NCBI GenBank assembly: GCA_963693285.1
Contig: OY848929.1
Location: 5,210,501 to 5,274,500 of the forward strand
Length of the DNA stretch: 64,000 bases
Origin: Xestospongia muta
Taxonomy: Eukaryota > Porifera > Demospongiae > Haplosclerida > Petrosiidae
Direction of reading: 5' to 3'
Positions 1-64,000 of the stretch are shown one piece after another. Both the position numbers and the translations under genes were made by a program. Every line of letters starts with the position of its first letter. Position 1 is the first letter of the stretch. The notes beneath the pieces were generated by a model. It was not told the DNA's origin. It did not search any database and saw only the letters and a program-made list of their open reading frames with translations.

Positions 1-1753
1 TGGCTTTGATATTATTCAAGTCAGAATTAGTGAGATTTACAGTGATGATGTAGCCCACAGAAGGACTTACAGTTCCCCCTGAAAGACTAACTGATACATC
101 ACTTACATTATGTTCACTCTGAAGACTGACAGCAGTACCACTAAAAGAATTAGGATTTATGACGTCATCAAATGTAAATTTCAGTTGACCAGTGTTGACA
201 TCCAGTATAAATGTTTGCAGTTTAGGACTTGTGGAATCTGCAACATAGTCACTTGCTTGTATAGCGGCAGTTATTACAACTGGAGTAACTGGGTTTCCTT
301 CTGTATCTTTAAAAGTACCATTTTCAAAGGCTATATATGAGTTACTCCTACCAGTACCTAGATTGGGATACTCAAGCTTAATACCTCGTACATCTTCCTT
401 TGTAAGAGTAAATCTGATCTCCTTTCTATCAGTAAAAAACTGAATATTAGAACCTCCAGTAAGATTATAGAATGTATTACTATCAGTTGCAGCTCTAATG
501 CTGATACCAGTAAAGTCAATGAAACTACCCATAGGTTCTGAGAACTCAAGTCTAATAAACTCAAGGTTTAAGTTAAGCACAACAAACTGTTCAAGTGAAG
601 GGAAGATAGTGTCTTTAGTGTAAACCTTAGCCTTAAGAACAGTGTTATTGTTGACTTTGTTTCCATACATATCTTGAATGAGATCATTACCAAAGGTGAT
701 AAATGTGGTGTCCCTGTTTATTGCAAGGTCAAGGTTTGCTTGAAGTTTTATAATATCCTCAGCTAAAAGAGAAAATGTAAAGACAGTAGATGGCGTCAGA
801 CTTGGATCAATGCTCTCAGCAGTTAGTTTATAGGATGTGTTGGGTGGGTTTGCATCCTGGATTGTAAGAAATTCAGCATGAAATGTTCCAACATCCACTG
901 TTTCATCAAAAGTTAAGGTAATTGATCCAGCAGTAAGATCAATCTCAAAGTCAAGTAGTTCTGGTGGTGTAACATCTTCTATAAACTGCTGAGGTCGTGT
1001 TGACAAATCTGCATTAATAATAGAAGCAACATCAATGACTGGTTCTATTGGATTACCAGCCATGTCATGAGCAAACCCAGATGGAAATCTAATCCAACAA
1101 TCAAAGTTTTTAGGATCAGTGCAAAGTTGTTCAAAACCTTTTAAAGAGTTAAGATCTGAGGTATTAAAAGTGATGTTAAGAACATTGGTATGTTGAGAAC
1201 CAGCTCCTCCTCCATTAAGACGAATCAACTGATCAGTCAAGTCAGTGTTAACACCGTCTTGAATAATTATTTCCGTAAAGTTGACAGAACTAATGTTGAG
1301 GGTCTCGGTGAAATTGAGAACTATATATCCAGCATCTAAATCTAAGACACTCCATTCTATCATCTCTGGGTTAGTAGTATCGGGTATGAAGTCAGACGCT
1401 AAAATCTTCTTGGCATCATCTGAGGCAATATTAACCACACCATTACCATTTGTATCATTGAGAGTAGACATTGGAAAGGAAATATAACAGTTGTCTGCAG
1501 ATGTACAGACAGCTACTTTTTTGATCTCATTAAGATCTGATGCGGATAGAGTGATAGTCACATTGGATACCTGTTCTGATGGAATTGTGGTTGTATCAAA
1601 ATTGAATGAAATGGTATTCTCAAATCTTTTGCTCTGAAAGGTTATTTTAGATAAATCCATATTTGGTACATCCACTGTCTCGTTAAATTGAAGAGTCAAA
1701 GTTCCAGCATCAAGGTCAAGGTAGAAACGTTCTAAATTTGGAGGATTACCATC
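1..1753 (-). repeat. GENE-M cassette V: units M46-M50 (last one cut by the window edge)
   Basis: Unit starts: A 1753, B 1381, C 976, D 613, E 238. A has AVCTSADNCY. B has QLCTDPKNFDCW and the insertion (EWSVLDLD). D has F-S-E-P-M and E-D-V-R-G-I-K-L. E has F-D-D-V-I and leaves the window just after DLNNIKA. The array therefore continues to the left of base 1. Confidence 0.85.
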
Positions 1754-4700
1754 ACTTACAAAAGATGTTGCTCTTCTAGAATTGTTTGAAGGAATTTCAA
1801 TAATTTTGTTGCCAGAAGCATCAGTGATGGCAGAATCTAGAAGTTGAAGGTAAGTTGTGTTTTGACTAACAGCTAGACCATAAGTGGATTTAATTTTGTT
1901 AAGATCAGTGGCAGAAAGAATAATATCAATGATGTGAGGTTGTGATCGAACTATTGTACTTCCTACAGTGAGATTAAGAGACGAACGATCATCAGACACA
2001 GTCTGTGTACTGTGAAGAGTCATACTAGTAAGAGTCACAGATGCTGGGTTGACTGACTCTGAAAATGTTAAGCTCAATTTGCCAGTGTTCAAATCCAAGC
2101 TGTATTCATCTAATCCAGGTGAAACCATGTCACCAATAAATTTGTTCACCTGAAATGGATTAGGGTAAGCAATAGCCAATAAGGGATTTCTGACTAAGTC
2201 TTCAATAGCATCATAGTCAATGTAAATAAACGTATTATTTTTATTGGTAGCTAAATGGATCTTTTCTGAGATCTCATTGAAGTCAGTAAGACCCACTGTA
2301 ATGTTAATGGTGCTACCAGATGGAAATGTAGCAACACTCTCAGTGGTGAGACGATAGAACTGAGACTGAACAGGAGGTAGTGAACTGTCATTAGTAAGGG
2401 TGATGAATATTGTTGAAAAATCATCGGTTCTAATCAATTCATTGAAGACCAATTCGATCTCTTGTTGCCCCACATCCATATTGAATTCAAGTAGCCTGGG
2501 AGCAGCAGCATCTTTAACAAAGATAGAAACTTGAATACCAGAAGAGAATTCTGTGATATTGTTTCCAACAGCATCAGTAATAGCACCAGTATCAAAGAAT
2601 AGGAAAGTGCTATCCATGTCTCTAGCAATTGATGAACTGTTCTTCAGTCTATTCAAATCATTAGTAGTGAATTTAATACTAATCTCTTTACCATTGCCAG
2701 TCACTGGTGATGAAAGAGTTAAGCTAAAAGACTGTGTAGAGTTTGCATCAGCATCACTGGCATTCAAAACAGAAACAAGAGTTGGCTTAAAACTGGCCAC
2801 ACTGACTACCTCATTGAATGTAAGATTAAGAAAACCAGTGTCTAAGTCAAGTTTATAACTAACAAGTTGTGGTGGAGTGGTATCAGGGACGAACATTCCT
2901 ACTTTAAGTGCTGACGATGATTCGATGGAGTCAATGGCATTGTTATTAGTATCCATAATAGTTACTGAACTGAGTGAAATGTATGTATTGTTGTCACTGG
3001 TACCTAAGCCATCAATGAGTTGTAATGAAGTCAGATCAGCTGCTGTTAAGTTCACAAGGACTTCAGTGACAAAAGTATCACTTGTAACACCATTGGTAAG
3101 ATTGAGCTTCAGTGCACCAGTAATATCAGAATCACTTTGAAGTTGAAGTTGACTAAAGATTAAAGTACTGACATCTACTGTCTCATTGAATGTCAGTTTT
3201 AATGTACCATCATCCATATCAAGTGTAAAGTTAGTGAGTGAAGGTGAGGTAGTATCAGAAACATATTCTGCAGCAGGTAAAGCATTTTTGTCTGATATGA
3301 GAGTTACGAAGTTGCCAAAAACATCCTCTAAAGCTGGGCCATGAATTGAAAGGAAAGTTGTGGCCTTAGAGGAGGCAATATCTGACTCTGCCTTAATAGC
3401 ATTGATATCAGTGTCAGATAACTGAATGGTTAAGGTACGTGAGAATATAGTTGTGAGGGATTCTGTACCATCTGTCAAGTTGTATACTGATCCTGAGAGA
3501 GTGTCTGAATCAGCCACACCTTGAATGGCAACACTTAAAGCATTAAATGTACTACCAGGAACAATCTCATCAACAGTTAAAATAATAGTACCAGTATTGA
3601 GGTCAAAGGTAAATCTAATGATGTTTGGATTTGTGACATCTGAAAGAACATTTGTAGCTTGAAGATTAGTTACAATTGGGGCAGAATTTTGAGAAAGATC
3701 TTGAATGTAACCAGCTGAGATAGAAATAAAGGTATCGGATACATTAGTGCCAAGATTACTATTTATGACAAGGTTATCCAAATCATTATTAGAAAGTTCT
3801 AGAACAATGGTGCTACCATCAATAAGTCGTTTAGGTGTACCGCCTGTAATGGCTAAGGTCTCTGAGCTCCCATTTGTAAGATTGATAGAAGTTGGAATAA
3901 ATGAAGACAATAAAACAAGATCAGACATTTCTAAAGTCAGTGTGCCTTTGTTAAGATCAAGAGTGAACTCATTTAGATCCGGAGCATTTTCATCTGGAAT
4001 AAATTGACCAGGAAGAATAGCTTTGCCATTAGTAATAGCTAATACATCAACACCATATATATCATCAATTCCAAATGCTTGCATTGTTAGGTAAGTATTG
4101 CTGAGTTGTGTGGCAACTTGCTGGTTGTCTCGCAATTTAAGACGATCTTGTAAACCAAGTGTAACATTAATAACATAGCCATTAGCACTGTTTGTTATAG
4201 TAGAAGGTGAAAAGGTTACACTTTCATTAGTAATAGCAGTCTTGTTCGATTGAATGGTTATTGATGTAGCATCGAATGTTTTAGCATTAACAACATCATC
4301 AAAAGTCAAAAGTAAAATCCCTGGTTCAATGTTAATACTAAAGTTTGATAACTGGGGTCTAGTGGTGTCTGCAGAAAAACCATCAGCTTTCTGAGGACCA
4401 GTTTGATTAATTTTATTGCCAGATGCATCTAAAATCCCACCAGCATCAATCAGTATAAAAGTGTTGTTGACATTGGAAACAAATCCTTCTGTTAGTTTTA
4501 TAGTTGCAAGGTCGTTGTCGTGTATTTCCAGTGTAGCCATAATTGATAAGTCAAGTGTTCCTTTAATCACTTTGCTTTCCATCAATGTGATATTTGTTGC
4601 AGGAGTTGAGGAATCAGACAAGAGAGTAATAGCAGTGAAATTAATGTCTGACAATTTTATTGGTTCATTGAAGAGAAGCTGAATTGTTCCATCATTAATA

Positions 4701-7700
4701 TCAATCTCAAATTGACTAAGTACAGGAGCAGTTGTATCATCAATGACATCAGATGCCTGTAAACCTTCAGTTGAGTCTATCCCAATCAACAAGTTATGTG
4801 ACATATCTTTTGCGGCACCAGTAGATATTGCTAAGAAAGTGTCACTAGTGTTAGTAGCAAAGTCTCTTAACTTCAGTTGGTTGAGATCAGCAATTGACAG
4901 AGCCACTTTAACAATCCTAGCTCCATCTGCTGTAGTAGTGCTACCACCTGTGAATGTGTAAAAGTCATTAGCATCGCTGACTGATTCTCTCTTCTGGATT
5001 GTAATACCAGTGTATACAATATCTGATGTACGCATTGGCTCTGAAAATGTGAGAGTGAGAAGACCAGAGTCAAGATCAAAGGTAAAGTCATCTAGGGTAG
5101 GGTCAGTTGTGTCTCCAGTAAAGCTCATTGCAATGAGACCAGGGAATGTTTCCTTTGTCATCTCATTAGAGTTACCAAAGAGATCATCAATGGTGTTATT
5201 AAGGATTCGAATGTAGCAGTTACTAGATTTAGTGCAAAGCTGACTTTTCTCCTGTATAGCAAATAAATCAGAGGCTGATAGATTGAAAGTTACAGTGGTG
5301 AAGTCTACTTCAAACACATCAGCATCTGTAATGTTGTAGGAATCTTCTGCATTGGCATAAAGACTTTGAAGGATCAGACGAGATCCATCAAAAGTTTCTT
5401 TATTGACAGGCTCATCAAACTTAAGAGTGATTGTACCCTCAACAAGATTGAATAATGCAAACTGAACTGCTTTAGGTCCTGTAGTATCTGTAATAACTGT
5501 AGACACTTGTAATGGAGTTGGACTCTGTTGAGCAATAATCTGAAAGCCTTCTGTATCCATTACTAAGGCTGAAGAGAAGCTAACATAGCAATCTGAAGAG
5601 TCATTACACAATGACTTTAACTTGATATTATTGAGATCGTCACTTGAGAGGTTAATGACAGCTTTAGAACTGGGATTACTGGAGGACAATGTGGAATCAT
5701 CAAGTGTGTAGGTAATGTTAGGACTAGCTCCAGTTTCTGACACAAAGCTCAAATCAGTAATTGTAAATGTTGTAAGATCAACACTTTCAGTAAAACTGAG
5801 CGTTAGAATACCATCATCAAGATCTAAAGAAGCAGACATCATTTGAGGATTGTCAGTATCCATAAGAAAATTGGATACTTCAATAGCCAATCGTGGTCGT
5901 ATTTCAGAAACATAGTTATCAGACATGTCTTTGATAGCATCAGATGTGATAGAGAGATAAGTGTTAGAGCGTAATTCCATAATTCCATCTAGAGCTTGAA
6001 TACTGTTTCTGTCCTCAACAGTCATGAAGAATTTGATGATTTTTCCATTAGTACTGTTGACTGTTCCACCATTCAATGTAAATTCAACAGTAGGGAAAAG
6101 TGCTCTCATGTTCTGTAAGGTGAACTGACGTGGATCCAAAGTTTGCGCATTCACTACTTCATCAAATGTTAAAGTAAACAAGCTATCATTAACATTAAGT
6201 TCAAAACTAAGGAGCTTGGGACTGGTTGTATCAGCAATGAATGTAGAAGCATTAAGAGCACTTGCTGTAGCCAATTCTTCTGCACAATTGTTGGCAATAT
6301 CACAGACAAGCAGAGCCTCATGATAAATGAAGGTATTGTTAGAAGCTGTGGCAAAATCCAAGTCTAGTTTTATGGTGTCAATAGTTTTTGTACTTAAACT
6401 AACAATAATCACATTGGAAACTGTGCTGCTAGCTACAGCATTATTAAGATGAATTTCATTGTCTGAAGATGTACCATTTAACAAGAACAGTTTAGAAGTG
6501 TTGAATTTAGTGAGCTGAACATCCTCATTGAAAGTGAAAATAATTTGTCCAGCATCTAAATCAAAGGTGAAAGAGTCAATAACAGGTGGAGTAAGATCTG
6601 CATTATGTTTAGTCACTTGAAAGATGACTGCTTCTATTGGAGTATTTGATGTATCGTTGATGGCTCCAGCAGACACATTGAGATATGTTGAGTCAAAATT
6701 AACACCAAGACCTTCTGTGTTACGAATATCTTTAAGCACTGAATCTTCAAGAGTAATAGTGATTGTTGTGGAAAGATCAGTTGAGTGACTTCCATTGAGA
6801 GCCACAAATGATGGTGGAGAGCTGTTATTACTTAAACTCAGCAATGATACAACTAATGTAGATGGATCAACAGTTTCATTGAATGTAAGAATTATCTGCA
6901 TTGGCTCTTGAATAAGAACGACTTCAAAACCAACAATGCTGGGTGGAGTAGTATCTGGAATGAACTTGTCAGGACCAATAGCATTAGCATTAGAAATTCC
7001 CACCAAGAGATTTTCATTAAGATCTTCTGTTGAGTTTTCCTTTATTGATAAAAAGACAGTCGTGTTAGAGACAGCAAATAAAGTTGTAGCTTTGATTTTG
7101 TTCAGCTCCTGTTCTGAGAAAGTAATTGGCACAAGATCTTCAAGGCCAGTGACATCAACACTGCTACCATCTAAAGTGATGTTGTCTGTTGGAAAATTCT
7201 TGCTAGCAAGTAGTGTAATGGATGATAAATCAAGAATGTCAGTATCAATACTTTCACTGAATGTCAGAGTTAGTTTTCCAAGATTCATATCGAGAGTGTA
7301 ACCTTTTAAAGTTGGTCGAATTGCATCACTTACAAACTTACTTGCTTGCAGAGCTCCATCTATACTGATAGCTGTGATCCTGTTCCCAGATGTATCATTG
7401 ACAGCTGATGAAAGCAGTGCAACGAAAGTATTACCCCTTGCAGTAGCAAAACCAGCAGTTTCCTTGATCTTGTTTAGATCATCTGAAGAAATAGTGAAGT
7501 TAATTTCTGGGCCAATGGTAGTGGTGAAAGTTCCACCAGTGATATTCAAGCTGTCAACTGCAAAGGCTGTTGAGCTCTGCAAACTAAAACTAGTTGGAGA
7601 AAAAGTAGATGGATCAACAGTCTCTGAAAACCTTAGCACTAATAAGCCAGTGGAGAGATAAAAGTCAAAAGATTGTAGTTCTGGAGCTGTGGTGTCTTTA

Positions 7701-10700
7701 ATGAATGAGGTAGCATGGATGTTGTTGGCTGCTTCTGCTGCATTGCCACTGTTGTCTGCAACAGCTCCATTATCAATGGAAAGGAAGGTGTTGTCTATCG
7801 ATGTAGCTAAATCAAAGTCAGCTTTGATATCATTGAGATCATCAAGAACAATCTGAAATTCAAAAATGTTGCCAAATTCAGTAGAAGTAGCACCATTGGT
7901 AAACCTGAATTCCTTTGCATCTGGATCAGACGAACTTCTTAAACGAAAGCGTTTAAATATCAAACTACTTGCATTGATAGATTCTGAAAATGTCAAAGTG
8001 ATTAAACCTTTGTTAAGGTCAAAGACATAGTTCTCAATTCGAGGACCTACTTCATCAGATTCAAAACTAGATGCTTGTTGGGCATTGTCCTTAGAAATAC
8101 CAATGACTGGATTGCCAGCCATGTCTACTGTCAAAGTGTTTGGAAAGGAAATGTAACTGTTGTTAATACTTGTACCAAGTTGTTCAAGATCTTTTATGTT
8201 ATTCAAATCAGTCAAGAGTAGAGACAGAGTGACGACATTAGAAGGATCACCACTAAGAGATCCATTCTTAGCCCCAGTCAAGGTATAATCATTATCTTCA
8301 TCAGAAGATACATTACTCTGTAAAGTTATTTGATTTGAATTAAACTTTAATGGATCTACAGCTTCTGAGAATGTAAGTCGAAGTTCTCCTTCTCCCAGGT
8401 CAAAGACAAAACGCTCAAGTTTAGGATGAGTGGAATCACCTGTAAATGTATCCACAACTCGAGCTTGTGTGACAGTACTACCAACAATTTCAACACCTGC
8501 AACATCAGTGATGGCATTCTGTTCAATTACAAGAAAGGTGTTGTTTTTTTCTGTGGCTAAGTTTCGTTTCCCTTTGATAGCATTTAGGTCAGTATCACTG
8601 AGGTTCAGGAATATATCATAACCATTTTCAACAGTGGCAGAACCTCCTGTAAGAGTGTATATTTCATAGAGAATATCACCATCGACTCGTACTTTCTTGG
8701 ATTGAATAGACAGTCTAGTTGGATCAAAGGTATCAGCTTTCATTATATCATTAAAAGAGAGATGGATTAGGCCTGAGTCTACATCTAGTGAAAAGAATTC
8801 GATTTGTGCTCGAGTGATATCCTCTAGATAATTTGTAACTCGATCGGCAACAGAGTTATTGAACCCAACCACAGGATTTCCAGAGACATCAGTTATGGCT
8901 CCATTATCAATGTAAAGAAAACTATCAGATTGTCTAGTGCCAAGACCAGTATCAAGTTTGAGATCTCTTAGTTCCGTATCACTAAAAGTAACTTCAATAA
9001 CAACTTTGTCTGTACCAATATATGCAACAGTACTATCAGTTAGGGTGAGGTTTGTGCCTCCGTCTACTCTAGATTGTAGATGGAACTTACTGCCATTAAA
9101 TTGACCTCTGTCAACTGGTTCATTAAACGAGACACGTAGGGTACCAGTATCTAGATTTAATTGTACAAAGTCAACAAACTGAGGATTAGTTTCATCTCCA
9201 GCTACAGCACTAGCTTTAAGGGCTTCATCAATATCAATAGAAGAAACAGGATTGCCTTGTATTCCTCCAATAATATTAGCAGAGCTATCTCGCACAAGGC
9301 TACTGGTGATAGTAAAGAAAGTGTTACTAGTATCGGTTCCAAGTCCATCCAAAGCTTTGATGTCTATAAGATCATCATTACTAATCTGTACCTGTATTTT
9401 CGTCGATACAATCTCATTAGGAACATCCCCACTTACAATTGTATGAGTCAAGGTACTGTTAATACCACTTACTACAGTAATTTCTTTGGCATCAAGTTGT
9501 CGTCCATCGACTGGTTCATCAAAGGTCAAATTAAGTATGCCATTGTCCAAATCTAATGTAACATCAGTCAATTTTGGATTTGTTGTATCTTGTATAAATT
9601 CAACTGTTTGACCAGCATCAGGAGGATCAGAACCAGCAGGAAGGAGTGACAAACCTGTGATTTTGTTACCCAACATGTCCATTAGAAAATCTTCAGAAAA
9701 TTGAACATGACATAGAATGTCTCGAGTACAAAGAGAGGGATCAGCTTTAATGGAATTGAGGTCAGCAGTATTGAGGGTAAATGTGAGAGTATCAGAGTTT
9801 AAAGTAGCTATATTTCCACCAGTAAGGGTGACTGTGGCTGATAAAGAAGACTCAGAATAATAGTCAGAGAAGTTTAGTTGGGTAAGATTTACTGAAGATA
9901 CTCGAATAGTTTCATTAAACTTTAAAGTAATTATTCCACTGTCTAGATCAAATGTTGTTAGTTCAATTAGTTTGGGAGGGTTAGTATCAGGAGTGTAAGT
10001 ATTTACCAATTTTGAATTTGAATTGGAGACACCCAGAACCTGATTTCCTGAGGTATCGTTGACAAGAGTTGACTCAAAGTTCAAGTAGCAGTTACTTTTC
10101 GCATTACATATCATTCTCCTTTTTATCTCATTAAGCTCATTGTTTTCAAAACTTATCTCCACATCCCTAAATGAATTTTCAGCAAAAGCTACTGTAACAT
10201 TCTCAACTTCTAGAATTTCTGCTATACCTGTTATAGCAATCCTATTATTTGACAATGTTAGCTTTGTTTTGTCAAATGTTTCAAGATTTACTGCTTCATT
10301 GAATCTAAGAGTTAAAAGTCCAGAATTGAGATTAAAATCAAATGTAGATAATTGAGGAGCTGTAGTATCCAGGACTAGGTCTTTAACTTTGACAGTAACA
10401 TCAAGTGCATTATTACCTACTGTATCTTGAATAGCACCTGCAAATGTATGAAGGAATGTGTCGTTCTTTTCTGTTGCAAGCTTAGCTATTTTAATAGCGT
10501 CAACATCACCATTAGAGAGTTGTATGTCAAAGGAAACATCAGACTCAGAGGGGTAACTTCCAAAAGTAAGAGAAGTAGATTCAAATGGTGACGAGCTTGC
10601 ATTTTGAAATGTCAGCAAGCCAAAGACAAGCGTATCTGGGTTTACAGTTTCACTAAATGTCACAGAGAGAATGCCACTGTCCAGATCAAGGTTGAATGAC

Positions 10701-13700
10701 TCTAGAGAAGGTCCAACTTCATCAGGAACAACTTTGCCAGCTTGAAGAGCATTGGTAGAAAAAATTGTTTTAACTGGAAAGTCAAAAAAATCTTGAACTG
10801 CTGTACTTCTAACAGAAAGATAAGTATTGGAGATATCAGTTGCAAGTCCTGACTCTCTCTTAATGTTATTTAAGTCACTAGCCCCAAAATCCAATTGGAT
10901 TTCATAGCCAGAGCCACCTGATACACTGCTTGCTGATGTGAGACGATATGTAAGTCCTCCAGAAGATGAACTTTGAAGAGTGAATGCACTCACAAGAACA
11001 GTTTCACTGTTCACTGATTCAGAAAAGGTAAGAACTAAAGCATTAAGACCATAATCCAAGGTATAGTTGAGAAGCTGAGGACGAGTTGTATCAGTTATAA
11101 AATTACCAATACCAAAGTCTGTGTTATTGATTGAATTGCCAGTTGTATCAAATGCAGAGTCATTGCTAAAGAAAAGAAATGTATTGCCTTTCTCTGTTGC
11201 AACATCAAGATCAAAAACCAACTTCTCCAAATCAGCTGTAGCAAGCACAATCTCAAAATCAGCTGCATCTCCACTGACGACTGAATTACTAAGGGCAATA
11301 GAGGAAGTAGCAGCAGAGTGGTTGTTGGTATTCTCAATTAAGAACTTTGTCAGATTAAGAGTACTGGCATCAATTGTCTCAGAGAAGTTAAGAATAAGTT
11401 TGCCAGAGTTCATATCAACTGTATAGCTCAGGAGTCTAGGATCAGTATCATCACCAATGTACTCAGCAACCTGTTTGCCAGATTCCATGTTCACTGATTG
11501 ATTAGCCATGTCTTGTACCAGTTGACTAGAGAAAGTAATATAGGTGTTTTCTCTTGAAGTAGCAAGGGTGCTAGCAGTTTTGATGCTGTTAAGATCTACA
11601 GTTCTAAGCTTCACTACAATAACAGAATTAGGAGAATTGCTTGCTGAACCTCCTGTGAGTGGAACTGATGTTGATGGAGACATACCAGAGTTTTGGATTG
11701 TAAGGTTGGTAAAACTAAAGCTGTTAGGATTGACTGGTTCATCAAAGGTTAGTGTGATTGTTCCATCATCCATGTCCAGAGTGTAGTTACTTAGCGTAGG
11801 GGATGTGATATCAGAAATGACATCAGTAGCTACTATACCCTCACTAACAGAGATGCCTTTGTTGCTGTTACTAGATGTGTCAGATATAAGTGAATCACCA
11901 GTACTTAAAAAGGTATTGGAAGACATAATTCCTATATCACTTTCAGATTTTATAGCATTAAGATCTTCATCTGACAATGTCACTTCTAAAGTAACAAAAT
12001 CAATAATTTTAGTGGATTTTGGGAGTGTAAGGCTAATAGAATCATCACGACTGCTGGCATCTTGGACTCCTTGAATTGTAATGGCTGAGAGGTTGAGAGA
12101 AGAGAGATCATAAGTTTCACTGAAAGTAAGAGTTAGAATACCATTGTTTAGATTTAAAGTGAAGCTAATCACTTCAATACTTGTGTTATCTGGAATGACC
12201 TCACTTGCCTTAAATGTTCCACCAGGAGCTAAAGAATTGTTAAATAAATCCTTTATGGCACCTGCTGCAATATTCAAGAAAGTGTTGTTAATGTTTGTAC
12301 CAAGAAGAGATGCATTCTTAATAAAGTTTAGATTATCATCGGTCAAAGTTAATGTAGCTGCTTTCCCATCATCAGAACGAGTGCGTATTCCTCCAGTAGG
12401 TTCAAGAGTGTCATCAGAGGAACCATTGTTGTGAAGAGTAAGGTCATTTATAACAAGTGAGGTATGGTCAATGAAATCAGTGAAGGTCATCAATAACTGA
12501 CCCTCATCTATATCCAGACTAAATGTAGACAGTGTTGGAGGTTCGTTATCAGTGATATAAATAGCTGCTTGAAGAGCTTTACCATCAGTGATTGCAATAA
12601 CATCTATACCTTCAACGTCATCAATAGCAAAAGCTTGCATAGTCAGCCAGCTAGTGTCAATACTCCTAGCAAGGCCACCTATTTTCTTAATCCCAAAGAA
12701 ATCTTCATCACTGAACTGAACTGAGATATCATAGTCATTGTTACTATTGGTTGTGGAAGTTTTTAAGGTGTAATGGAGGTCACCTTCTTTCCTTTTTCTA
12801 TCTTGGATTCTGAAAGCACTTGACTCAAACATGGATGCATCCATAACATCATCAAAGGTTAAATTCAAGACTCCTTTGTTCATATCCAATGTGTAGTTTC
12901 TCAGTTGTGGTCGACTGCCATCTGAAACGAATGATGAAGCCTTAATTGGTCCAACAGCTTCAAGAGGATTTGAGTTCATGTCTTCAATGGCACCAGCATC
13001 AATTTTCAGAAAGGTGTTAGTAGTATTAGTGCCAATGAGGTTATTAAGTTTCAGAGTTATGATATCTTCATTCAGTAACATCACTTTGATTTCTTTGACA
13101 CCATCTTCTTGAGTAGCTACATTGCCTCCAGTCAGTTGCAATGTGATACCAGCAGATTCATTGGCATTCTGGATTGTAAAAAGAGTTAAATTAGTCAATG
13201 ATGAAGTAAGCATTGGCTCATCAAACTTGAGGATTAATTGATCAAAGTTGAAGCTGAATTGGAACTCAACCAATGTAGGTGGAGTTGAGTCATTTATAAA
13301 AGTTGTAACAGGAAATGCCATGTTGAAGAGCTCTGGTTCCACTGCATTTTCACTAGGTTCATGAGCAGTATCTGTGATAAAATCTTTAGTAAAAGATATG
13401 AAAGTATTGGATTTTTGAGTAGCTAATTCACTGTTAGCTTTAAGTGTGTCCAAATCATTTTGAGTTAGAGACAATTCCATTGTTAAGCTATCAGCACCAA
13501 CAGTGCCTCCTGTTAGAGTCAGAGTTTGAACATTAGCATCGTTACCATCCTGTGCTGACTGAATCGTCAATTGTTTAGGTTCAACTGAAACTGAAGAAAC
13601 AGGTTCGTTAAAAGTTAGTATAAGTTTACCACCATCTATATCCATTGTAAAAGAATCAAGAGATGGCTTCTGACTATCAAGGATGAAAGTCCTAACAACA

Positions 13701-19160: not shown

Positions 19161-19165
19161 ACCAT
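19157..19165 (-). other. Minimal upstream ORF overlapping the GENE-M start
   Basis: ATG-GTA-TGA is read from 19165. Its stop overlaps the main ATG (ATGA). It would be in any transcript that starts upstream, spliced or not at the nearby acceptor. It may be chance, but termination-reinitiation at such overlaps is a known way to tune translation. Confidence 0.3.
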
Positions 19166-19176
19166 TATGAAGCAGT

Positions 19177-19200
19177 CTAAAGTAATAAAAAAAACTTGTT
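19177..19200 (-). other. Candidate 3' splice site in the GENE-M 5' UTR
   Basis: On the minus strand a T-rich tract (TTTTTTTTATTACTTTAG) ends 17 nt before the proposed ATG at 19160. If used, it would remove the upstream in-frame ATG at 19310 and make 19160 the functional start. Confidence 0.35.
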
Positions 19201-19230
19201 TTGAAAGACCTGACCACAGTTATGTTAAAA

Positions 19231-19247
19231 CAGCTGATCATCAGCTG
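19231..19247. repeat. Perfect inverted repeat, two E-box cores
   Basis: CAGCTGAT-C-ATCAGCTG has 8-nt arms around one base, each arm holding the E-box core CAGCTG. It lies about 70 bases upstream of the GENE-M start. A basic helix-loop-helix binding site is possible but not supported by anything else. Confidence 0.35.
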
Positions 19248-19256
19248 CAGTAATAA
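19245..19256 (+). repeat. 12-nt direct repeat, copy 1
   Basis: CTGCAGTAATAA, repeated exactly at 19419-19430 in the same intergenic region. Short enough to be chance. Confidence 0.25.
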
Positions 19257-19418
19257 CATTTGCATTACAGTATTTACAATATCACTATACCGTTGTTGAT
19301 CTCCCATCATGCCTGAGGCACTCTAAAAGGGAGCAACTGCAAAAAGGGGAGGATTACACACAGTCAAGCACTGTGCAAGTATCACAGGTAAAGTGAAAAA
19401 AGATGTAGGAGTCACAAA

Positions 19419-19430
19419 CTGCAGTAATAA
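19419..19430 (+). repeat. 12-nt direct repeat, copy 2
   Basis: Second copy of CTGCAGTAATAA, 174 bases from the first. Confidence 0.25.
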
Positions 19431-19600
19431 AGTTGCTTCAATCGAAAGAGATGAACAGAAGACGATCAAAAGGACTCTGAGGCCTTCTTTCTGAATATCC
19501 ACCCCGTTTACGAGTAGAAATGGAGGGCCAGCCTTGCAAAACGTGATACCCGGATAAAGATCTGTTGTTCAGTATCTCTATGGATACATTGCCAAACAGA

Positions 19601-19642
19601 GGGCGGATTACTTACTGAGCATGCGCATATCCAGGTATAATA
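19601..19642. promoter_or_regulatory. Cluster of GC box, NRF1-like site and TATA-like element
   Basis: GGGCGG is at 19601-19606. GCATGCGCAT is at 19619-19628; it contains the palindrome ATGCGCAT and resembles an NRF1-type GCATGCGC site. TATAATA follows at 19636-19642. These are the most CpG-rich motifs in an otherwise AT-rich spacer. Motif resemblance only; no transcription start is visible. Confidence 0.3.
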
Positions 19643-19744
19643 GAATTCATAGTTGAACTAAGCAACTATTCAGCCCACCTTCTTCCAGAGAAGAAATAAG
19701 ACTTTTCTATCAGTTGGGAGAAAAGCCAATAAAAGTCAACAAAG

Positions 19745-20029
19745 AAGATCTAGATTTAAGTATTATAGTAATAATTTTGCAAGCCACTCCTCCTTTTAGT
19801 AGCAGTATGCAAACCAAGTATTAAGAGGTTAGTTACTACTGATTTTATAACTATTGTAAGCATCTATATGCATATAAGTAATTTACTTACTGTACAAGGA
19901 CAATACTAGTTAATAGGTTTAGATGAAATCTACTGTACCTACCATTTGTTGCTATGTATAATTTAACCCTTTAAAGCGATATTTTTTTTCTATTTTGCAT
20001 ATTTTGCACTGCTGCTTACATGCAATAAA
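19745..20029. other. AT-rich stretch without a recognisable gene
   Basis: This part of the divergent spacer is AT-rich with no coding signature. It most likely holds 5' UTR intron sequence of GENE-P, given the splice-acceptor-like sequence that follows it. I see nothing else in it. Confidence 0.4.
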
Positions 20030-20048: not shown

Positions 20049-20074
20049 ATAAAACAAGATAAGTTTGCGAAAAT

Positions 20075-53100: not shown

Positions 53101-56100
53101 TCTAACAGAGGCCACAAACACAACTTTCTTGTCACTTACAAACTTTACCATTTTTGACATGAATGACAACAATGTGGTCAGTATTTCTTCCTCTTCAGCT
53201 CTAAATGTCAATGACTTTTATGCTGATTACATACCTCCACAATTAATTGGATTCAGTCTTGACATTGACACTGGAATTCTTGTAATGAATTTCTCTGAAA
53301 CTATCGATATCTACTCACTCAATATTAGTAAAATTCTTCTTCAACCAGACCAATTAACTCCACATGATTACTCTAATGTGACCTACACTTTACAACATGG
53401 TCAACCTCCACTACTAAGTTCAAGCCCATCCACTGATTACCATATAATTCAAATAGATATAGGCAAAGATGACTTAAATGAAATTAAACGAATTAAGGAA
53501 TTGGCAAGAGAAACTAATAACACTTACATTTCTTTTCCCAATACACTAATTAGTGACATGTTTGGTAATAGTATTGTTTACTTACCTAATGGTGAGGCTA
53601 GACAAGTCAGTCAATACACTCCTGATAAAACTGGTCCTGTCTTCCTGTCATTTTCTTTCAACTTGAGCTCTGAACTGTTAGTCCTAACATTTGATGAGAC
53701 AGTAGATATTAGTACTATTAACATCACTTATCTCACATTTATATCTGGAGTGGCTAAACAGACAAATGGTTCAGCCAGTGGTTCTGGATACAGTTCAGGG
53801 AGTGGCTCGGGTATCATACTTAGTACTGAACCTTTTACTTCATATACACTAACTAATTGGGTTAGTATTACTGAAGTAGATGGACCTATTGTCACAATAG
53901 TGCTGACTGACGATGATCTTCATGAGATCAAACTGCTACGTGATTTAGCCACCGTGCCAAACAACACTTACTTACAACTGCATAAGAAAGCATTCCTTGA
54001 CAATGCTCTAGATCCTAATCCAAGTCAACCCACTACTCTACCAATTCTCAATGAAAAGTATGGTTATGATGTGATTGCTCCTCGACTAACATCTTTTACT
54101 GTGGATATGAATACAGCCATATTGGTTCTTAATTTTGATGAACCAGTAGATAGATTCACTTTTAATCCAGCTGGTCTCACTCTTCAAGGAGATGAGACTA
54201 CATACTCTTTGAAACAAGCCATGCAATTGACTGGAGGCTATTCCAATAGCTCAGATGGTTTGGTGATTCGACTTCTACTTACTAAAGAAGATTTGGACAA
54301 ACTAAAGCAAAACACTTTTATCTTTACTAACATCAACACATCATACCTAGTAGTTGATCCATCCTTTATTAAAGACATGGCAGGCAACCCAATTCAAGCT
54401 ATTATCGATGGAAATGCTCTACAAGCTACAGAATACCAAGATGATATCAACGAACCAGTTTTAATTGGTTTCTCACTAGACATGAACAGTGCAAACTTAA
54501 CACTCACCTTCTCAGAAACTGTCAATGTTCAATCACTTAATTTCACTCAGCTAACACTACAAAGAACAGCCAATGTCACTGGTAATTTTTACCAGTTCAG
54601 TCTCACTGGAGGAGAGTTGTGGTCTACAAGAAATGACACCCGAATCTATATCAAGATATCAGATCAAGATCTCAATGAACTGAAATATAGAACAATTGCT
54701 AATGACAACACAACTGCTTATTTGACTTTCCCCAGTACTACTCTTCTTGATATGAATAAGCAACCAGTACAGGCTCAAGTGAATGGATTGTCTGCTTTTG
54801 CTGTGACAGACTACACTCCAGATACCACACAACCAAAACTTGTCTCATACACTTTGAATCTCACTTCAGGACAAATCGATATTTTATTCTCTGAGACTGT
54901 CAATGTGATGACAAGCTTTGATGTTACTCAACTTACTTTACAAGATGCTGAAACCAGAGTTACAGACAGTCCAGGACTTCGTTATTTCACTCTAAATCCT
55001 GGTAGTGTCTCTATAAGCCCAAATGATCCAAGTATCATCGTGGAACTTAGTACTCCAGATCTCAATGCTATAAAGAGAAGAGAAACATTAGCAACATCTA
55101 CCTCCAATACATACATTGCTATTACTGAAGCCTTTATTGAAGACATGGTTGGTAATGATATTGAAGTCATTACTCCAGAAAAAGGTTTGCAAGCCACCGA
55201 TGTGTTCAATGATACTGTAAGACCAGAACTAATGGAATACTACCTTGATTTAACAGCAGATACATTAACACTGAACTTTACAGAAACAGTCGACACTAGA
55301 ACCTTTGATATGACTGCTTTCTCATTCTATGCTAGTGATGATGATCTAAGTGAATTTTATACATTAACAGGAGGCTATATAGTATCTCCACCATCTGACA
55401 TTGTCATTGTTGAATTATCGACTTTTGATCTCAATGTTATCAAAGAAAAATATGCTCTAGCCATTGATAAAGAAACAACTTATCTCTCCATTACTGAGTA
55501 TGCTTTACAAGACATGAGTGGACTTAATGTAATTGCTATTGTTCCAGAGTTAAGTCAGCAAGTTTCTTTATATACTGATGATTCAGTTAGTCCTAAACTA
55601 GTCTCATTTGACCTTGACTTGAATTCAGGACCTGGTCTTCTTTCATTGACTTTCACAGAAACAGTTAATACTGATACTTTGCAGGTATCATCTATTACTT
55701 TACAAAACTTACCTACTGGTTCCATTAGCTATCAACTTGATACTAGCTATACAACCAGCCCCAATGGAACTGTAGTGAAGATAAATTTAACAGAAGAAGA
55801 CTCCAATATCATCAAATACCATACTGGGCTAGCAACCAGTGCAACTAACACATTCCTTACCTTGGTTGAAGATGCTATTACAGACATGAACAATAACACT
55901 GTTGTAGCAATACCTAATACGAAAGGACAGCCTGTTAGAAAGTTCACTGCAGATACAACACCTCCAATGTTGAGAAATTTCTCTCTTAATCTCACCTCTG
56001 AAATCTTGACACTAACTTTCTCAGAGACAATGCTTGCTGACAGTTTCAAGCCAAAAGAAATAACTTTATTGGCTAGTAGTGTAAAATCATCTCCATATTA

Positions 56101-59100
56101 TACTCTTACTGGAGGTTATGTCTCTACAAACAACTCTACTGTTATAACAGTGATGCTTACATTTGATGATCTCAATGTCTTGAAGAGGATGACCATGTTA
56201 GCTACAAATCTCAGTAACACTTATATCAGCATTACCTCATCTTTAGTAACTGATATGAATTATAATCCTGTCATTAAAATCTCACCTGAATCACCACGTA
56301 GAGGCAATGCTTTCTTTGGAGATCAAACAAAACCATCACTTGTAAACCTTAGAGTAAATTTTGATACTGGTCTCATTATTCTCACATTCTCTGAGACTGT
56401 AAATATAGATTCACTTGATATCACAGAATTAACATTTGTTGACTGCTGCAGTTACTCTACTAACACTAATGCATCTGCAAGTGGATCAGGAAGTAGCCTG
56501 TCTGGCTCTGGAAGTGGTTCAGGTAGTGGTTCAGGAAGTATACAGTTACCTTTATATAAGTACAGCTTGACGAAGGGGAACTGTTACAATAGCAGTAACA
56601 CAGTCTTCACTTGTTATTTAGATGATGGAGATCTCAATGAGCTCAAGCGACTTCCATTGTGTACCCAGCAGTCAGATTGTTGTCTCATATTTACAGGAGA
56701 TGCTATACAAGACCACTTTAACAATGAAATAGCAACAACATTTGGAGCATGTGGTGTTAATTCCACATACATTAAGGATAAAAACAGACCCAGTCTTGTT
56801 CATTTCACATCTTTTGATCTTGATATGAACATTATAACATTGACGTTCAATGAAACTATTGATGCCTCTACCATTAATATGGGTGCCATCACCCTTCAAT
56901 CTTTCTATTACAATCCTCATTACTCTTTCTCTCTAACTGGAGGTATAGTCCTCAGTTCAGATAGTACAGTAGCTGAGCTCCAACTTTCTCAAGATGATGT
57001 TTTTGAGATACAAAAGCTAAGAGGTTTATGTTCAGAGATCAATAACTGCTGGATATCCTTTAATGATAGCTTTGCTAAGGATATGGCTGGCAATAGGATT
57101 TCACCTGTTCCACGAGACAATGCAGAGCCTGCAACTATATTTGAGGATGACATGCAAGCACCCAAACTGCTTGACTTTGAACTTGATTTGAGTAATGATA
57201 CACTAACACTCACATTTAGTGAGATTGTTGATGCTGTCTCTCTTGATCCAACAGCTATTACTATTGTAAATGCCCAATCAAATAGCTCCATTGCTATCAC
57301 TCTTACTGGGGGAACCACAAACAGTCCCGATGGGCTTGTAATAACTGTAAACCTCCTCAGCAAAGATACTAATAAACTAAGAGCTCTAGATAACATTGCC
57401 AAAACTGAAAGCAATACCTTCCTATCTATAACCAGTGACTTAATCAATGATGCAGTACGGCTTCTACCAAATCCAGTTATTGCTATCAATCCATCTAATG
57501 CACTTCAGATCAAACCAGGAGGACTCTATCCTGATGTTATCCCTCCGGAACTGACAGGGTTCTCATTAGACCTTGACAAAGATACTCTTACATTGACATT
57601 TGATGAGCCTGTACGAGTATCATCTATACTCTTTCACTACATCACACTTATTTCACAACCTACTAGCTTTCCTGAAAACTTCAGAGAATTGACTGGAGGA
57701 GAGATTGATGATGACACAAACTACAATGGAACTATGAAGATTGTAGTTCACTTAACTCAACCTGATATTCGCCATTTCAAACTCTCAGAGACTGACCTAG
57801 CTAATGATGAAACAGATACTTTTATTAGTGTCATAAAAGGTATGATACTTGACATGGCTGACAATCCTCTGGTGGCCATTCCTTACAATGAATCATTACA
57901 AGTCAAAGATATAATTCTTGATACAACACCAGCAACTCTTATTGACTTCCAACTTGATATGAATGAAGGACTTCTTCATTTAACCTTTAATGACATCATC
58001 AATAGTTCTACACTATATGCTCCTGCCATCACTATACAAAGCTCCAAATATATCATGACTGATTATGTAACATTGACAAAATCTAGCACTACTAACAGTG
58101 ACCATGGTTACTATATAACAGTCAATATATCCACTGAAGACTTAAACCGTATCAAACTCAATGACAATCTAGCAACACAACTTGCTAATACATATGTTTC
58201 AATGAGAGCTGAAGCATTTATGGACAATTTTGAAGTGGATGTTATAGCTGTGACCAGCCACGATGCACTCCCTGCATCTATGTTTATAAATGACACAACA
58301 TCACCAGAGCTCCTGTATTTTTCTCTTGATATGGATTCTGGTACAATCAGTTTGACATTTGATGAGACCGTCAGAGCAAATACCATTGTTGAAGAAGAGA
58401 TTACACTGTTGGGATCTTCAAACATCTCAAACATATCCTATGTGACTTTGATTGATGGAATTGCCTCGACACAAGACTCAACTGTAGTTGACATCAGCAT
58501 TGTCAAAGACGATTTGAATGAAATCAAATTTCTAACAGATTTAGGAACTTCCACAAATAATACTTTTATTGCTTTTAATAGTGAACTCATAATGGATATG
58601 AATGATAATCCAGTATCTGCTATCAGTGAGTATGATGCTCAACAAGCTAAAAATTTCTCTGAAGACCAAACTTCACCATCACTCGAGTTATTTTCTATAA
58701 ATTTGACTGATAACACACTAACATTAATATTTGATGAAACAGTTAATGCCACTTCTCTCATGACAACTGAACTCACTATTCAAGGTGATGTCTCACTAGA
58801 ACAAAATGCCTACAGATTACTACAGTCAAGTTCTGGCTCATCAGATGATTCAACTATTATAATAGTCTATTTAGGTCTGAGTGATCTTAATGAAATCAAA
58901 AGACTGACTAATGTTGCTACCTCTAAAAATGACACCTACCTTTCAGCCACATCATTGACAATTGAAGATATGAATGGCAATCATCTAGTAAGTGTGCCAT
59001 TTAACAATGCTATACGAGCTTCCAACTATTATGGTGACACAATCAGACCTTATCTAGAGGGATTTAGTCTCAATCTCTCATCTGAAATACTGACTTTATC

Positions 59101-62100
59101 CTTCTCAGAAACTGTACAAGCTAGTACTCACTATGTACAACTATACACATTGCTATCATCAGAAAGTATCGAAGATACTAAGTATGACTTGACAGGTGCC
59201 CTGGCTACCAGTGAAGATTATCATATCCTCGAAGTTGAGTTAACAACAGCCGATTTAAATGTCATTAAGGGTCTCACTGATTTGGCTACTAATGACAACA
59301 ACACCTATATTCTTGTGGAATCAGGAGCTATTAAAGATATGTTTGGTAATCCACTTCTTCCATTAGAAAAGACAATTCAAGTCACAACTTTCACTGAAGA
59401 CTTTGTTCAGCCTATTTTGACTCATTTTGACTTGGACATGAATGTGGGTGAGCTAACTCTGTTCTTCTCAGAAACAGTTAACACATCCACATTCAAAGTT
59501 GACCAAATTCTTTTACAAGACAATCAATACCTACCCAATGCAACTAATACCTTTTGGCTGACAAATAATAGCTACATAAATTCTACTAACTATCATATAG
59601 TCACTGTGTACATTGGTGATAATAACCTCAATGAGATAAAGAGGCTCCATACCTTAGCATTAGACAATTCAACAACTTACCTGTCTATCACAAGTGATTT
59701 AGTTACTGACATGAACAATAACTCCATCATAGAGATACCAGAGACTGGGGCCTTATTTGTATCCAAATATAACAGTGACACAACTCCACCAGAGCTAGAA
59801 GAATTTGATCTCAACATCAATGTGAGTTTACTTGTGCTTCACTTCAGTGAGACAGTAGACAGAGAGTCTCTCAATGTAACAGCTATTACCATACAACACA
59901 ATGTTAGCTCCATTTCTGATGTACATGTTCTTGTTCTTAGTAACAACAGTTACTCTATCTCACCTAATGGTACTACTATAACTATACACATCAGTATATA
60001 TGATCTCAATGAACTCAAACGTCTCAATGAAATAGCCACTTCAAACAATAACACATACCTTTCAATAACATCTGATGCCATTCTTGATATGGCTGGTAAT
60101 CCAGTTGTACCAATTCTTCAATCTGATGCACTTCGTGGACGCATTTTTACCCCTGATGAAATCCGTCCAGAATTAGAAGACTTCAGCCTAGACATGAACA
60201 TAGGTGTATTACAACTGACCTTCTCAGAAACTGTCAATGCTTTAACATTCAACATCTCTACTATTACATTACAATCCACCAGTAATACTTCTGAGAGTTA
60301 TACCTTAAAAGAAGGTCTCCTACCAGATCTCTCCTACTCTAATAGTTCAGACAGCACTATCTTGACAGTGTATCTTGGTATTGAAGACATGAATGCACTC
60401 AAGAAAATCTACAACCTTGTTACAACTGAAAACAACACATTCTTGTCCATCACTGAGAATGGGGTTGAGGATATGACTGGTTTAAGTCTAGTTCCTATAC
60501 CATTCGATGAAGCACTTCCTGTTACCACATACATTGAGGACAGCACTAGCCCGGTGTTGCTTTCCTTCTCTCTCAACCTGTCATCTGAAATCCTATCATT
60601 AACATTTGATGAAACTGTTAATGTTGACAGTCTTAATGTCACAGAGCTCACAATACAATCTAGTTCTAACTTCTCTATCAGTACATTTGTTGATCTTAAG
60701 GATTTGAGAGATCTCTCTCCTGAAAATTCCACTATTGTGTCCTTCCGTCTTGCCTTTGATGATCTCAATGACATCAAACTTGATGAAAATTTAGCAACTG
60801 ATACTTTCAACACTTGGTTAAGGCTATTCCCGTCAGCCATTACAGATATGGCCTATGAACCAAATCCAATTGAAGATACAATACAGAGAGTGACTCTCTA
60901 CACTAATGACAGTGTTAAGCCAAACCTATTGTCATTTTATGTTGATCTTGATGCTGGGTATCTTGTGTTGAACTTTGATGAGCCAGTAGATGTGTCCACT
61001 CTAAACTATACATCATTTACTCTCTACTCTACCAAAGCAACATCAGATATGATCAATGCATCTCTATCTTTAAATGATACATTCTTTTCTGCCAATGGTT
61101 CTGGTTTAGCTTCTGGCAGCGGCAACAATGAGGTACCTTTGACATATTTCACTTTAACTGATGGCTTTACAAACAGCAGTAATGGACTCCAGATTACTCT
61201 TGTGTTTACACTTGATGATCTTAATGCAATCAAGAAAGATGAATATCTCTATACTAACAGACATTCATCTTACCTCAGTATTACACAGTACGCCATTGAA
61301 GACATGACTACAAACCAAATAAACAGCATCAATCCTTCAAATGCAATCAGAGCATTCCAATATGTCAATGATGAAACATCTCCAGTACTTACTGGTTATG
61401 ATCTTGATATGGATACTGGTCTTCTTACACTTTACTTCCCAGAGACCATTGATGTGTCCAGTATTATGTTTGATGGTATTGTACTACAAAGAAGCTCGAA
61501 TGTGACTATTAGTACTGGACAATATATGTTAACTAGTGGCAGACTTAATATGACAGAAGATGGCATCGCTGCATATATACAGATTACACATGATGATTTG
61601 AATGAGATCAAGCAACGTAGAATTGCTTTAACTAATTCTACAACATGGCTAACAATCGAAAAATCAACTCTTTTAGACATGAATGAACAACCATTATTAC
61701 CTCTTGTAAATGGCTATTCAGCTAAGCAGGTAGCAGAGTATACATCTGATACAACTTCACCTACACTACAATTTTTCGTACTGAATCTTGATGCCAATAC
61801 ACTATTTATGAGTTTCTCTGAGACAGTAGATGGCTATAATCTGAATGTGAGCACCATTACCTTGCAAGACACCTCAAATGGTAGTTATTTGTATAACCAC
61901 TATTCACTTAGTTCTGGCTCTAGTTATGTCACCAGTGCTTATGGACCCAATGTCACTATTACCATTGGCTTGGATGATATGAATATAATTAAAGAACTTA
62001 TTGAACTAGCCATCGATAAGAATAGTACTTTTATTAGCTTTACACAAGAATTGGTCGCTGATGTCTTTGGAAATGATATTATTGATATTAAATCCACTTC

Positions 62101-64000: not shown

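What the first reader, a model, noticed from the sequence alone, without database searches (positions are those of the whole stretch)
1..64000. A recurrent five-domain cassette (A-B-C-D-E) punctuates both giant arrays
Eleven places share the same ordered signatures: two adjacent units with a Cys pair (A, B), an ordinary unit (C), a unit with x-[EK]-P in the strand motif (D), then a unit with [DNS]-D-[VI] (E). Cassettes start at units 0, 24, 42, 60, 78, 96 in GENE-P and at 0, 12, 23, 35, 46 in GENE-M. In GENE-M, unit 0 is degenerate and does not show the A signature. The two genes sit on opposite strands with different spacing, so the cassette predates their split and has been kept. It may be a fixed structural node or ligand-binding segment placed at set distances along a very long fibre. 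I know of no description of it.
Basis: partly seen in the sequence, partly recalled or inferred. Interest (0 to 1): 0.93.

Follow-up and report, generated by a model that had tools for sequence, protein, structure and literature searches.

The report
Spaced five-domain nodes, giant sponge fibre
Two neighbouring sponge genes encode secreted chains of about 334 and 126 similar beads, and a special five-bead block recurs along them at spacings also seen in distantly related sponges, as if the chain were a measured fibre with attachment points.

Summary
Window = C13:5210501-5274500 of an unnamed 158-Mb genome whose closest named relatives are sponges. GENE-M is one open frame of 41,553 codons (334 Ig-like units); GENE-P has 16,013 codons (126 units). 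In M, 27 complete cassettes, 23 of them starting outside the window, are spaced 11,12,11,12 without exception (26 of 26 intervals). Two cassette types, I and II, alternate. A third gene on the same contig has cassettes too.

Homologues carry the case. Of 76 long relatives, 34 align unit by unit to one absolute position of M or P. Of 85 cassette intervals in the 25 M-like ones, 83 are 11 or 12. Dysidea avara gene models follow P's units in order from end to end. A choanoflagellate has the cassette at spacings 12 and 13.

So this is an ancient, measured, titin-like super-repeat in a secreted glycoprotein: made by block duplication, then conserved. Best mechanism: cassettes are docking or cross-linking nodes. 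New: M ends, and mature P begins, with complementary halves of one domain, suggesting that the chains join. Ligand, location and function are untested. No description was found in the searches listed.

The parts
19118..19160 (-). GENE-M exon 1: signal-peptide-like start MILIVLLATSLSTIYA (last residues completed by exon 2), followed by a GTGAGT donor
   Evidence: read directly from the joined frame; no signal-peptide predictor was run
1..18900 (-). GENE-M exon 2 (window part); the open frame continues to contig position 5104773, 41,553 codons, no stop
17036..18541 (-). M cassette 0: units B-E (M000-M003), preceded by a degenerate first unit
12551..14416 (-). M cassette (type I), units M011-M015
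8438..10369 (-). M cassette (type II), units M022-M026
3995..5860 (-). M cassette (type I), units M034-M038; modelled with AlphaFold2 (pLDDT 92.1, pTM 0.76)
1..1753 (-). M cassette (type II), units M045-M049, cut by the window edge
18901..20074 (.). M's 5' intron and first exon plus the head-to-head intergenic stretch; the two ATGs lie 915 bases apart
20075..64000 (+). GENE-P (window part): signal-peptide-like start, then 126 units; the open frame ends at window-scale position 68101 (16,009 aa from the ATG)
20132..20326 (+). second half of an A-type unit at the mature N terminus of P (profile columns 64-110), Cys pair included; complementary to M's terminal half unit
20327..21844 (+). P cassette 0: units B-E (P000-P003)
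28988..30850 (+). P cassette (type I), units P023-P027
35696..37720 (+). P cassette (type II), units P041-P045
42677..44566 (+). P cassette (type I), units P059-P063
49370..51310 (+). P cassette (type II, weak), units P077-P081
56321..58291 (+). P cassette (type I), units P095-P099

Best explanation
M and P are secreted, glycosylated giant fibre proteins of a sponge, built of about 123-residue bacterial-type Ig-like domains. The five-domain cassette is a specialised node: its A and B domains each carry a Cys pair (mostly C-x5-C, probably a disulfide clamping one loop), and its E domain (type I in M) is the most conserved domain of the array. Nodes of two alternating types (I, II) are held at fixed domain counts (11/12 in M, mostly 18 in P) by the length of the domains between them. 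The fibre therefore presents two kinds of docking or cross-link site at measured intervals, about 45-50 nm in M if a domain spans 4 nm as in titin. Shown: the order, the spacing, the alternation and their conservation. Inferred: secretion (signal-peptide-like starts), rod shape (model of five domains), disulfides, docking or cross-linking. Unknown: the partner and the place in the body.
For: Spacing strictly 11/12 over 26 of 26 intervals in M, 23 of 27 cassettes starting outside the window. Cassette classes are shared by P and M while other units are not: mean centred similarity E(P)-E(M, type I) 69, B 48, D 28, A 24, C 17; M-other against P-other -2. Short homologues: A,B,x,D,E in order in 28 of 81 proteins, shuffled mean 0.42, maximum 3 in 1,000 shuffles; the E motif at +4 from an adjacent Cys-Cys pair in 32 of 35. 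Long homologues: 34 of 76 colinear with one absolute position, 1,323 of 1,818 units best-matching exactly that position, together covering 126 of 126 P units and 334 of 334 M units. In the 25 M-colinear ones 83 of 85 intervals are 11 or 12. Types alternate in 27 of 27 complete M cassettes (leave-one-out) and 6 of 6 in P, and in 95 of 99 successive pairs in 41 homologues with two or more strict cassettes. Dysidea avara gene models follow P's units in order from start to end. E of type I keeps 39% identity among 14 copies against 25% over all unit pairs in M. Model: five beta-sandwich domains, pLDDT 92.1. N-glycosylation sequons in excess: 1,004 against 743 shuffled in M, 485 against 284 in P.
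Against: No expression, localisation, binding or biochemical data. Non-cassette units also show phase signal (20.8 at offset 23 in M), and by raw identity only E of type I stands out: A-D of type I lie at 0.26-0.32, inside the range of linker phases. M's gene-start cassette scores as ambiguous type I (+29) where alternation asks for II. P-type spacing varies in some relatives (19 and 20), and P0083, P0091 and P0134 do not alternate types (0 of 4 pairs). 22 of 76 long homologues show no cassette by my rule (many look like the third gene's C-terminal part). Six of the 34 colinear fragments lose register towards one end (P0083, P0104, P0120, P0124, P0127, P0132), so single units have been gained or lost at times. 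Corticium is colinear only in aggregate (11 of 51 and 17 of 47 units exact). Most homologues come from unnamed contigs, so the number of independent species is unknown.
Confidence: 0.62

Rival explanations
1. Relic of block duplication. The array grew by tandem duplication of multi-domain blocks carrying one or two cassettes. Once units had diverged to about 25% identity, unequal crossing-over stopped, and the count froze without any selection on spacing.
For: A 23-unit (M) and an 18/36-unit (P) higher-order repeat is clear, also in non-cassette units. The highest identity between two units of one gene is 0.49 (M) and 0.50 (P), so recombination between units is indeed unlikely now. Duplication surely made the pattern.
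Against: Neutral freezing does not explain why A, B, D and E are recognisable across paralogues and in a choanoflagellate when neighbouring units are not; why E of type I is far more conserved than units of the same age; or why M spacing is almost invariant (83 of 85) while P spacing changes in some relatives.
Confidence: 0.2
2. Mechanical element. The cassettes are disulfide-stapled, stiffer or less unfoldable segments that set the elasticity of a long tether; they bind nothing.
For: Two adjacent domains with an extra Cys pair in every complete cassette of M and P; titin offers a precedent for graded Ig mechanics (recalled).
Against: D and E are distinctive too and have no such Cys pair; two alternating types and exact spacing are not needed for stiffness.
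Confidence: 0.12
3. Flagellar-vane filament (a more specific form of the best explanation). The family forms the vane of sponge choanocytes and choanoflagellates, with cassettes at the branch nodes of the mesh.
For: The homologues that carry a species name are sponges and the choanoflagellate S. rosetta. The S. rosetta vane is a mesh of about 3.5-nm filaments with nodes, first branching about 80 nm from the membrane; its composition is unknown and carbohydrate or glycoprotein was suggested (PMC9671500, passages). Domain width and node spacing are of that order.
Against: No expression or localisation data; proteinase K did not remove the vane (same passages). Collar mesh, gasket or mesohyl matrix would fit the taxonomic range as well. 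Homologues in other phyla are not excluded: the searches were capped by length and candidate number and most hits are unnamed.
Confidence: 0.12
4. Artefact of assembly or of segmentation.
For: Very long repetitive frames invite suspicion.
Against: Units within a gene are at most 50% identical, so an assembler should not confuse them. The frames are stop-free over 125 and 48 kb, and sequences of other species show the same order.
Confidence: 0.01

Closest known systems
Titin/connectin A-band super-repeats (11 copies of 11 domains; PMC7427331, passages read)
   Same: A giant tandem-Ig chain with a many-domain super-repeat of about 44 nm (about 4 nm per domain) matched to attachment sites, and evidence for a molecular-ruler role
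   Different: Titin is intracellular, of Ig and FnIII domains; here the chain has signal-peptide-like starts, bacterial-type Ig-like domains, two alternating five-domain nodes and no known partner
Bacterial Ig-like domain family Big_5 (PF13205) and the S-layer proteins SbsC/SbsB
   Different: Animal protein, hundreds of domains; cassette and super-repeat order not known to me from these
GhpA grappling-hook protein of Aureispira (9flv, 9flw, 9g8b)
   Same: Among the top Foldseek hits for the cassette model (ranks 1, 2, 4)
   Different: Bacterial; no sequence match found; TM-scores on the query 0.13-0.15, so only a shared rod-of-domains arrangement
49,014-residue single-exon protein of the glass sponge Aphrocallistes vastus (PMC10282587, one passage)
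   Same: Sponge, single 147-kb exon, similar size; possibly an orthologue of M or of M+P

Membership tests
Bacterial Ig-like (Big_5, PF13205) domain | Profile match at or above the curated cut-off | tested here: met
   M stretch 25.2 bits against 23.6; single units: 13 of 58 match at E up to 0.1, best 2.4e-4; the P stretch gave no Big_5 match at E up to 1
Bacterial Ig-like (Big_5, PF13205) domain | S-layer-type Ig-like beta-sandwich fold | tested here: met
Titin/connectin family | I-set Ig and FnIII domains | tested here: not met
   In the parts scanned: no I-set or fn3 match in two 3,000-residue stretches or among the 25 of 29 families shown for 58 units
Titin/connectin family | Intracellular, kinase domain, sarcomeric place | not tested
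   Signal-peptide-like starts on both genes argue for secretion; no kinase in the Pfam scans made, but most of M and P was not scanned
Titin-like molecular ruler (works like) | Higher-order domain repeat of constant length | tested here: met
   Autocorrelation at 23, 46, 69 in M (33.4, 29.5, 28.3; next 7.2) and 36, 18, 72, 54 in P (30.0, 23.8, 19.4, 15.7; next 11.3); 11/12 in 26 of 26 intervals
Titin-like molecular ruler (works like) | A partner that binds once per super-repeat | not testable with these tools
   Needs binding or imaging data
Choano-flagellar vane filament | Localises to the vane | not testable with these tools
   No proteomic or imaging data found; PTSG_06209 named in 0 papers of the library
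Choano-flagellar vane filament | Present in both choanoflagellates and sponges | tested here: met
   Domain family: S. rosetta PTSG_06209, Dysidea avara, Corticium candelabrum, Geodia barretti, Ephydatia muelleri. Cassette seen in the first three; the Geodia fragment shows none and the Ephydatia one only parts
Sponge aggregation-factor type proteins (Calx-beta; recalled) | Calx-beta domains | tested here: inconclusive
   No Calx-beta in the M and P stretches scanned; a weak one, 15 bits against a cut-off of 27, in the C terminus of the third gene

The most novel reading that the evidence does not exclude
M and P are two separately secreted chains joined end to end by a split domain: M's conserved C-terminal half unit (columns 1-56) and P's conserved N-terminal half unit (64-110) fold together into the A domain of a cassette. 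The result is one composite fibre of about 460 domains in which cassette types I and II alternate across the junction, and this fibre is the unidentified filament of the sponge and choanoflagellate flagellar vane, its cassettes being the mesh nodes. (Joining alone about 0.35; vane alone about 0.12.)
Probability: 0.08. Interest if true: 0.97.

Novelty: new variant of a known kind. Interest (0 to 1): 0.86.

Why it matters
If spacing is functional, this is a second natural solution to the molecular-ruler problem, outside the cell, unrelated in domain family to titin, and traceable to before the split of animals and choanoflagellates. It puts exact domain counts on giant proteins that gene models cut into pieces and that are named only 'uncharacterized' or 'hypothetical' in the records seen. 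It makes a long-standing question, what the flagellar vane or collar mesh is made of, testable through one named choanoflagellate gene, PTSG_06209. The split-domain junction would be a new way to make a fibre longer than one gene.

Tried and rejected
Block duplication alone: the higher-order repeat is real, but it does not explain cross-gene and cross-species recognisability of the cassette units. A cassette-specific motif for C: none found; C is weakly recognisable within types only. Class of M's terminal half unit: A scores best of the five cassette classes in 5 of 6 half units (M and five orthologues; C in P0118), but 'other' scores higher still in 4 of the 6 (A is best overall only in P0096 and P0092), so that half is not diagnostic; P's half is A-like in P and P0082, B-like in P0102. 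Matches to solved structures by sequence: none for P's first 3,000 residues; with a profile of 58 units only 8gsy at E 0.33. NCBIfam gave nothing above a cut-off. Foldseek matches have low TM-scores on the query (0.10-0.18 in the 50 rows shown) and were not used as kinship. Permutation test with M-trained profiles on single homologues: 12 of 80 at p up to 0.01 and 22 of 80 at 0.05 (9 and 17 without Cys); one of 81 had too few units. The second model, P's N-terminal half plus B and C: DSSP assigns no strand of three or more residues in the half, which fits a missing partner but may be expected of any half domain.

Rows dropped before counts: unit hits at or under 30 bits or starting after profile column 12 in M and P (this leaves out P's half unit, a partial inside P055 and M's degenerate first unit; two units that one search had merged with their neighbours were split out, which moves later M indices by one and two); hits at or under 15 bits in the third gene, 10 bits in short homologues, 8 bits or shorter than 30 columns in long ones.

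Papers: PMC10282587, PMC9671500, PMC7427331 and PMC7755389 were seen as passages only; the others only as search listings with starts of abstracts. PMC7755389 was consulted for vane widths and is not used as evidence. Absence from print rests and on the held open-licence library only.

Full report
What the window holds. It is C13:5210501-5274500 of an unnamed 158-Mb genome in 28 contigs. Two open frames run off its ends. With 220 kb of neighbouring sequence, GENE-M is a single open frame of 41,553 codons (contig 5104773-5229431) and GENE-P one of 16,013 codons (5230563-5278601). M has a small first exon that reads like a signal peptide, MILIVLLATSLSTIYA, at window 19160-19118, with a GTGAGT donor and an acceptor before window 18900. 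P begins MGFYFTFLFLLVVGFGQG. No signal-peptide predictor was run. The two ATGs are 915 bases apart, head to head. The closest named relatives are sponges, so I take the organism to be a sponge; its species was not determined.

The cassette. Over both genes, 27 M and 5 P cassettes are complete, plus one at the start of each gene whose first unit is degenerate (M) or halved (P). Exceptions are few: Cys pairs outside cassettes in 2 of 195 M units and 2 of 97 P units, plus M032 by a looser count. Ten of eleven stray E motifs in M lie in the unit after a type-I E.

Super-repeat. Column-centred similarity between unit i and unit i+k peaks at k = 23, 46, 69 in M (33.4, 29.5, 28.3; next 7.2) and at 36, 18, 72, 54 in P (30.0, 23.8, 19.4, 15.7; next 11.3). 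Non-cassette units alone still peak there (M 20.8, 18.4, 14.9; P 30.9, 24.8, 24.0, 21.8). So whole blocks were duplicated. But the signal is uneven: within-phase similarity in M is 111 for E of type I and 67 for B of type I, and 3-4 for two linker phases. By raw identity E of type I stands out (0.39) while A-D of type I (0.26-0.32) do not differ from linker phases. No two units of one gene exceed 50% identity, so no recent duplication is involved.

Two types. M's two cassettes per super-repeat differ. With profiles from M only (leave-one-out inside M), the type sign alternates in 27 of 27 complete M cassettes and in 6 of 6 of P (II, I, II, I, II weak, I); M's gene-start cassette is ambiguous (+29, I, where II is expected); the third gene reads I, II, and later I, II.

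Third gene. At C13:4874968-4923236, minus strand, about 180 kb beyond M's far end, two exons give frames of 2,311 and 13,770 codons, with a signal-peptide-like start (MISKTILVFLLVFLVAIGQ) and three IPT/TIG domains at the C terminus (PF01833, E 4.8e-27). It has cassettes at S0, S10, T36 and T66 and, by the D and E motifs at T002 and T003, perhaps a fifth across the intron.

Homologues, short. A 1,242-residue query returned 81 proteins, among them Dysidea avara, Geodia barretti and Ephydatia muelleri. In 28 of 81 the signatures A, B, x, D, E occur in order; shuffling unit order gives 0.42 on average, at most 3 in 1,000 trials. Of 40 adjacent Cys-Cys pairs, the E motif sits at +4 in 32 of the 35 that reach so far and the D motif at +3 in 32 of 37. 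These proteins may include several per species.

Homologues, long. A second search returned 76 proteins of 5,506-7,987 residues, including two each from D. avara and Corticium candelabrum and one from the choanoflagellate Salpingoeca rosetta, PTSG_06209. Cassettes are 11 or 12 units apart in 100 of 122 intervals; 24 then 18 recurs in P-like ones (P0082; D. avara P0102). 22 of 76 show no cassette. Unit-by-unit comparison places 34 of 76 on a single absolute diagonal of M or P (criterion: best diagonal at least 1.5 times the next, z above 8); 1,323 of 1,818 units have their best match at exactly that position, and together they cover 334 of 334 M and 126 of 126 P units. Six of the 34 lose register towards one end. 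Among the 25 M-colinear ones, 83 of 85 intervals are 11 or 12, the other two being a run of extra Cys pairs in P0104; the 9 P-colinear ones give 24 (2), 18 (6) and 19 (1); the remaining 42 give 11 (5), 12 (12) and 10, 13, 16, 20, 23 or 24 (11). Types alternate in 95 of 99 successive pairs in 41 proteins (the four failures in P0083, P0091, P0134), and 83 of 84 intervals of 11 or 12 go I to II at 11 and II to I at 12; the exception is S. rosetta, which reads I, 12, II, 13, I. Corticium (Homoscleromorpha) is colinear only in aggregate (11 of 51 and 17 of 47 units exact), yet its models end at the same last unit of M and of P. Most other hits are unnamed contigs, so the number of species is not known. 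A third search with the S. rosetta protein named no further species.

Halved domains. M's frame stops inside unit 334. In M and five orthologues, Corticium included, the last unit covers profile columns 1 to 54-64; P and two orthologues begin, just after their signal-peptide-like starts, at column 64. Joined, the two halves of this genome score 86.5 bits as one unit. M's half is about as conserved as other half units (identity to orthologues 0.80, 0.65, 0.41, 0.43, 0.45; means of other units in the last four 0.58, 0.52, 0.49, 0.40, the first mean not computed). It lies 23 units after M's last cassette start, exactly one super-repeat, and P's half is A-like and is followed by B, C, D, E. Type evidence is mixed: the register predicts type I there, P's first cassette reads II, and so do those of P0082 and P0102; that breaks the phase but keeps the order I, II, I across the junction. 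Modelled without its partner, P's half forms no strand of three or more residues. This suggests that one ancestral array was split inside a domain and that the halves still meet. It is inference; M's half alone is not diagnostic of class A.

Mechanism. A rod of similar domains measures distance. Nodes of two kinds at fixed counts suggest docking or cross-linking at measured intervals, as in titin's C-zone, where 11 super-repeats of 11 domains at about 4 nm give 44 nm and deletion of two super-repeats shortens the filament (PMC7427331, passages). By that figure M's node spacing would be about 45-50 nm, P's about 70 nm, M about 1.3 um long; I could not measure the rise per domain on the model. 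The place is unknown. The flagellar vane of S. rosetta is a mesh of about 3.5-nm filaments with nodes, of unknown composition (PMC9671500, passages); this fits the taxonomic range and scale but nothing here tests it.

Against. There are no expression or binding data; P spacing and alternation fail in some relatives; single units have been gained or lost in some fragments; the neutral alternative that the array was simply frozen by divergence is not fully excluded. Size is not new: a 49,014-residue single-exon sponge protein is in print (PMC10282587, one passage).

Noticed in passing
contig C13:5104773-5229431 (M, reaching beyond the window): One stop-free exon of about 124.6 kb encoding about 41,550 residues, larger than titin as usually quoted (recalled).
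   Followed up: yes
C13:4874968-4923236, loci L023-L027: Third paralogous giant gene (2,311 + 13,770 codons) with cassettes, ending in three IPT/TIG domains and a weak Calx-beta match below cut-off.
   Followed up: partly
M units 16, 39, 85, 108, 154, 177, 223, 246, 269, 315: The unit just after the type-I E often (10 of 14) repeats the E motif; type-I cassettes of M may be six units long.
   Followed up: no
unit P095, about 56321-56776: An A unit with eight cysteines, against two in the other A units of P.
   Followed up: no
M units 323, 145 and 32; P unit 9: Isolated Cys-pair units outside cassettes; M323 lies close to where the next type-II cassette would be expected.
   Followed up: no
window 18901-20074: Head-to-head M and P with 915 bases between ATGs: a possible shared promoter.
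   Followed up: no
homologue P0079 (eukprot): A protein with six such units, a probable membrane segment (my reading) and SH3 domains in its tail (Pfam as listed): the domain family may also occur in signalling receptors.
   Followed up: no
C13:5081093-5085560, locus L015: Several neighbouring frames resembling each other (Cys-containing ectodomain, hydrophobic segment), possibly a small receptor cluster.
   Followed up: no
C13:5328160-5335744, loci L011-L012: Long open frames made of a short repeat (NNTSITYNTSIT and IPVLPT in other frames), a minisatellite.
   Followed up: no
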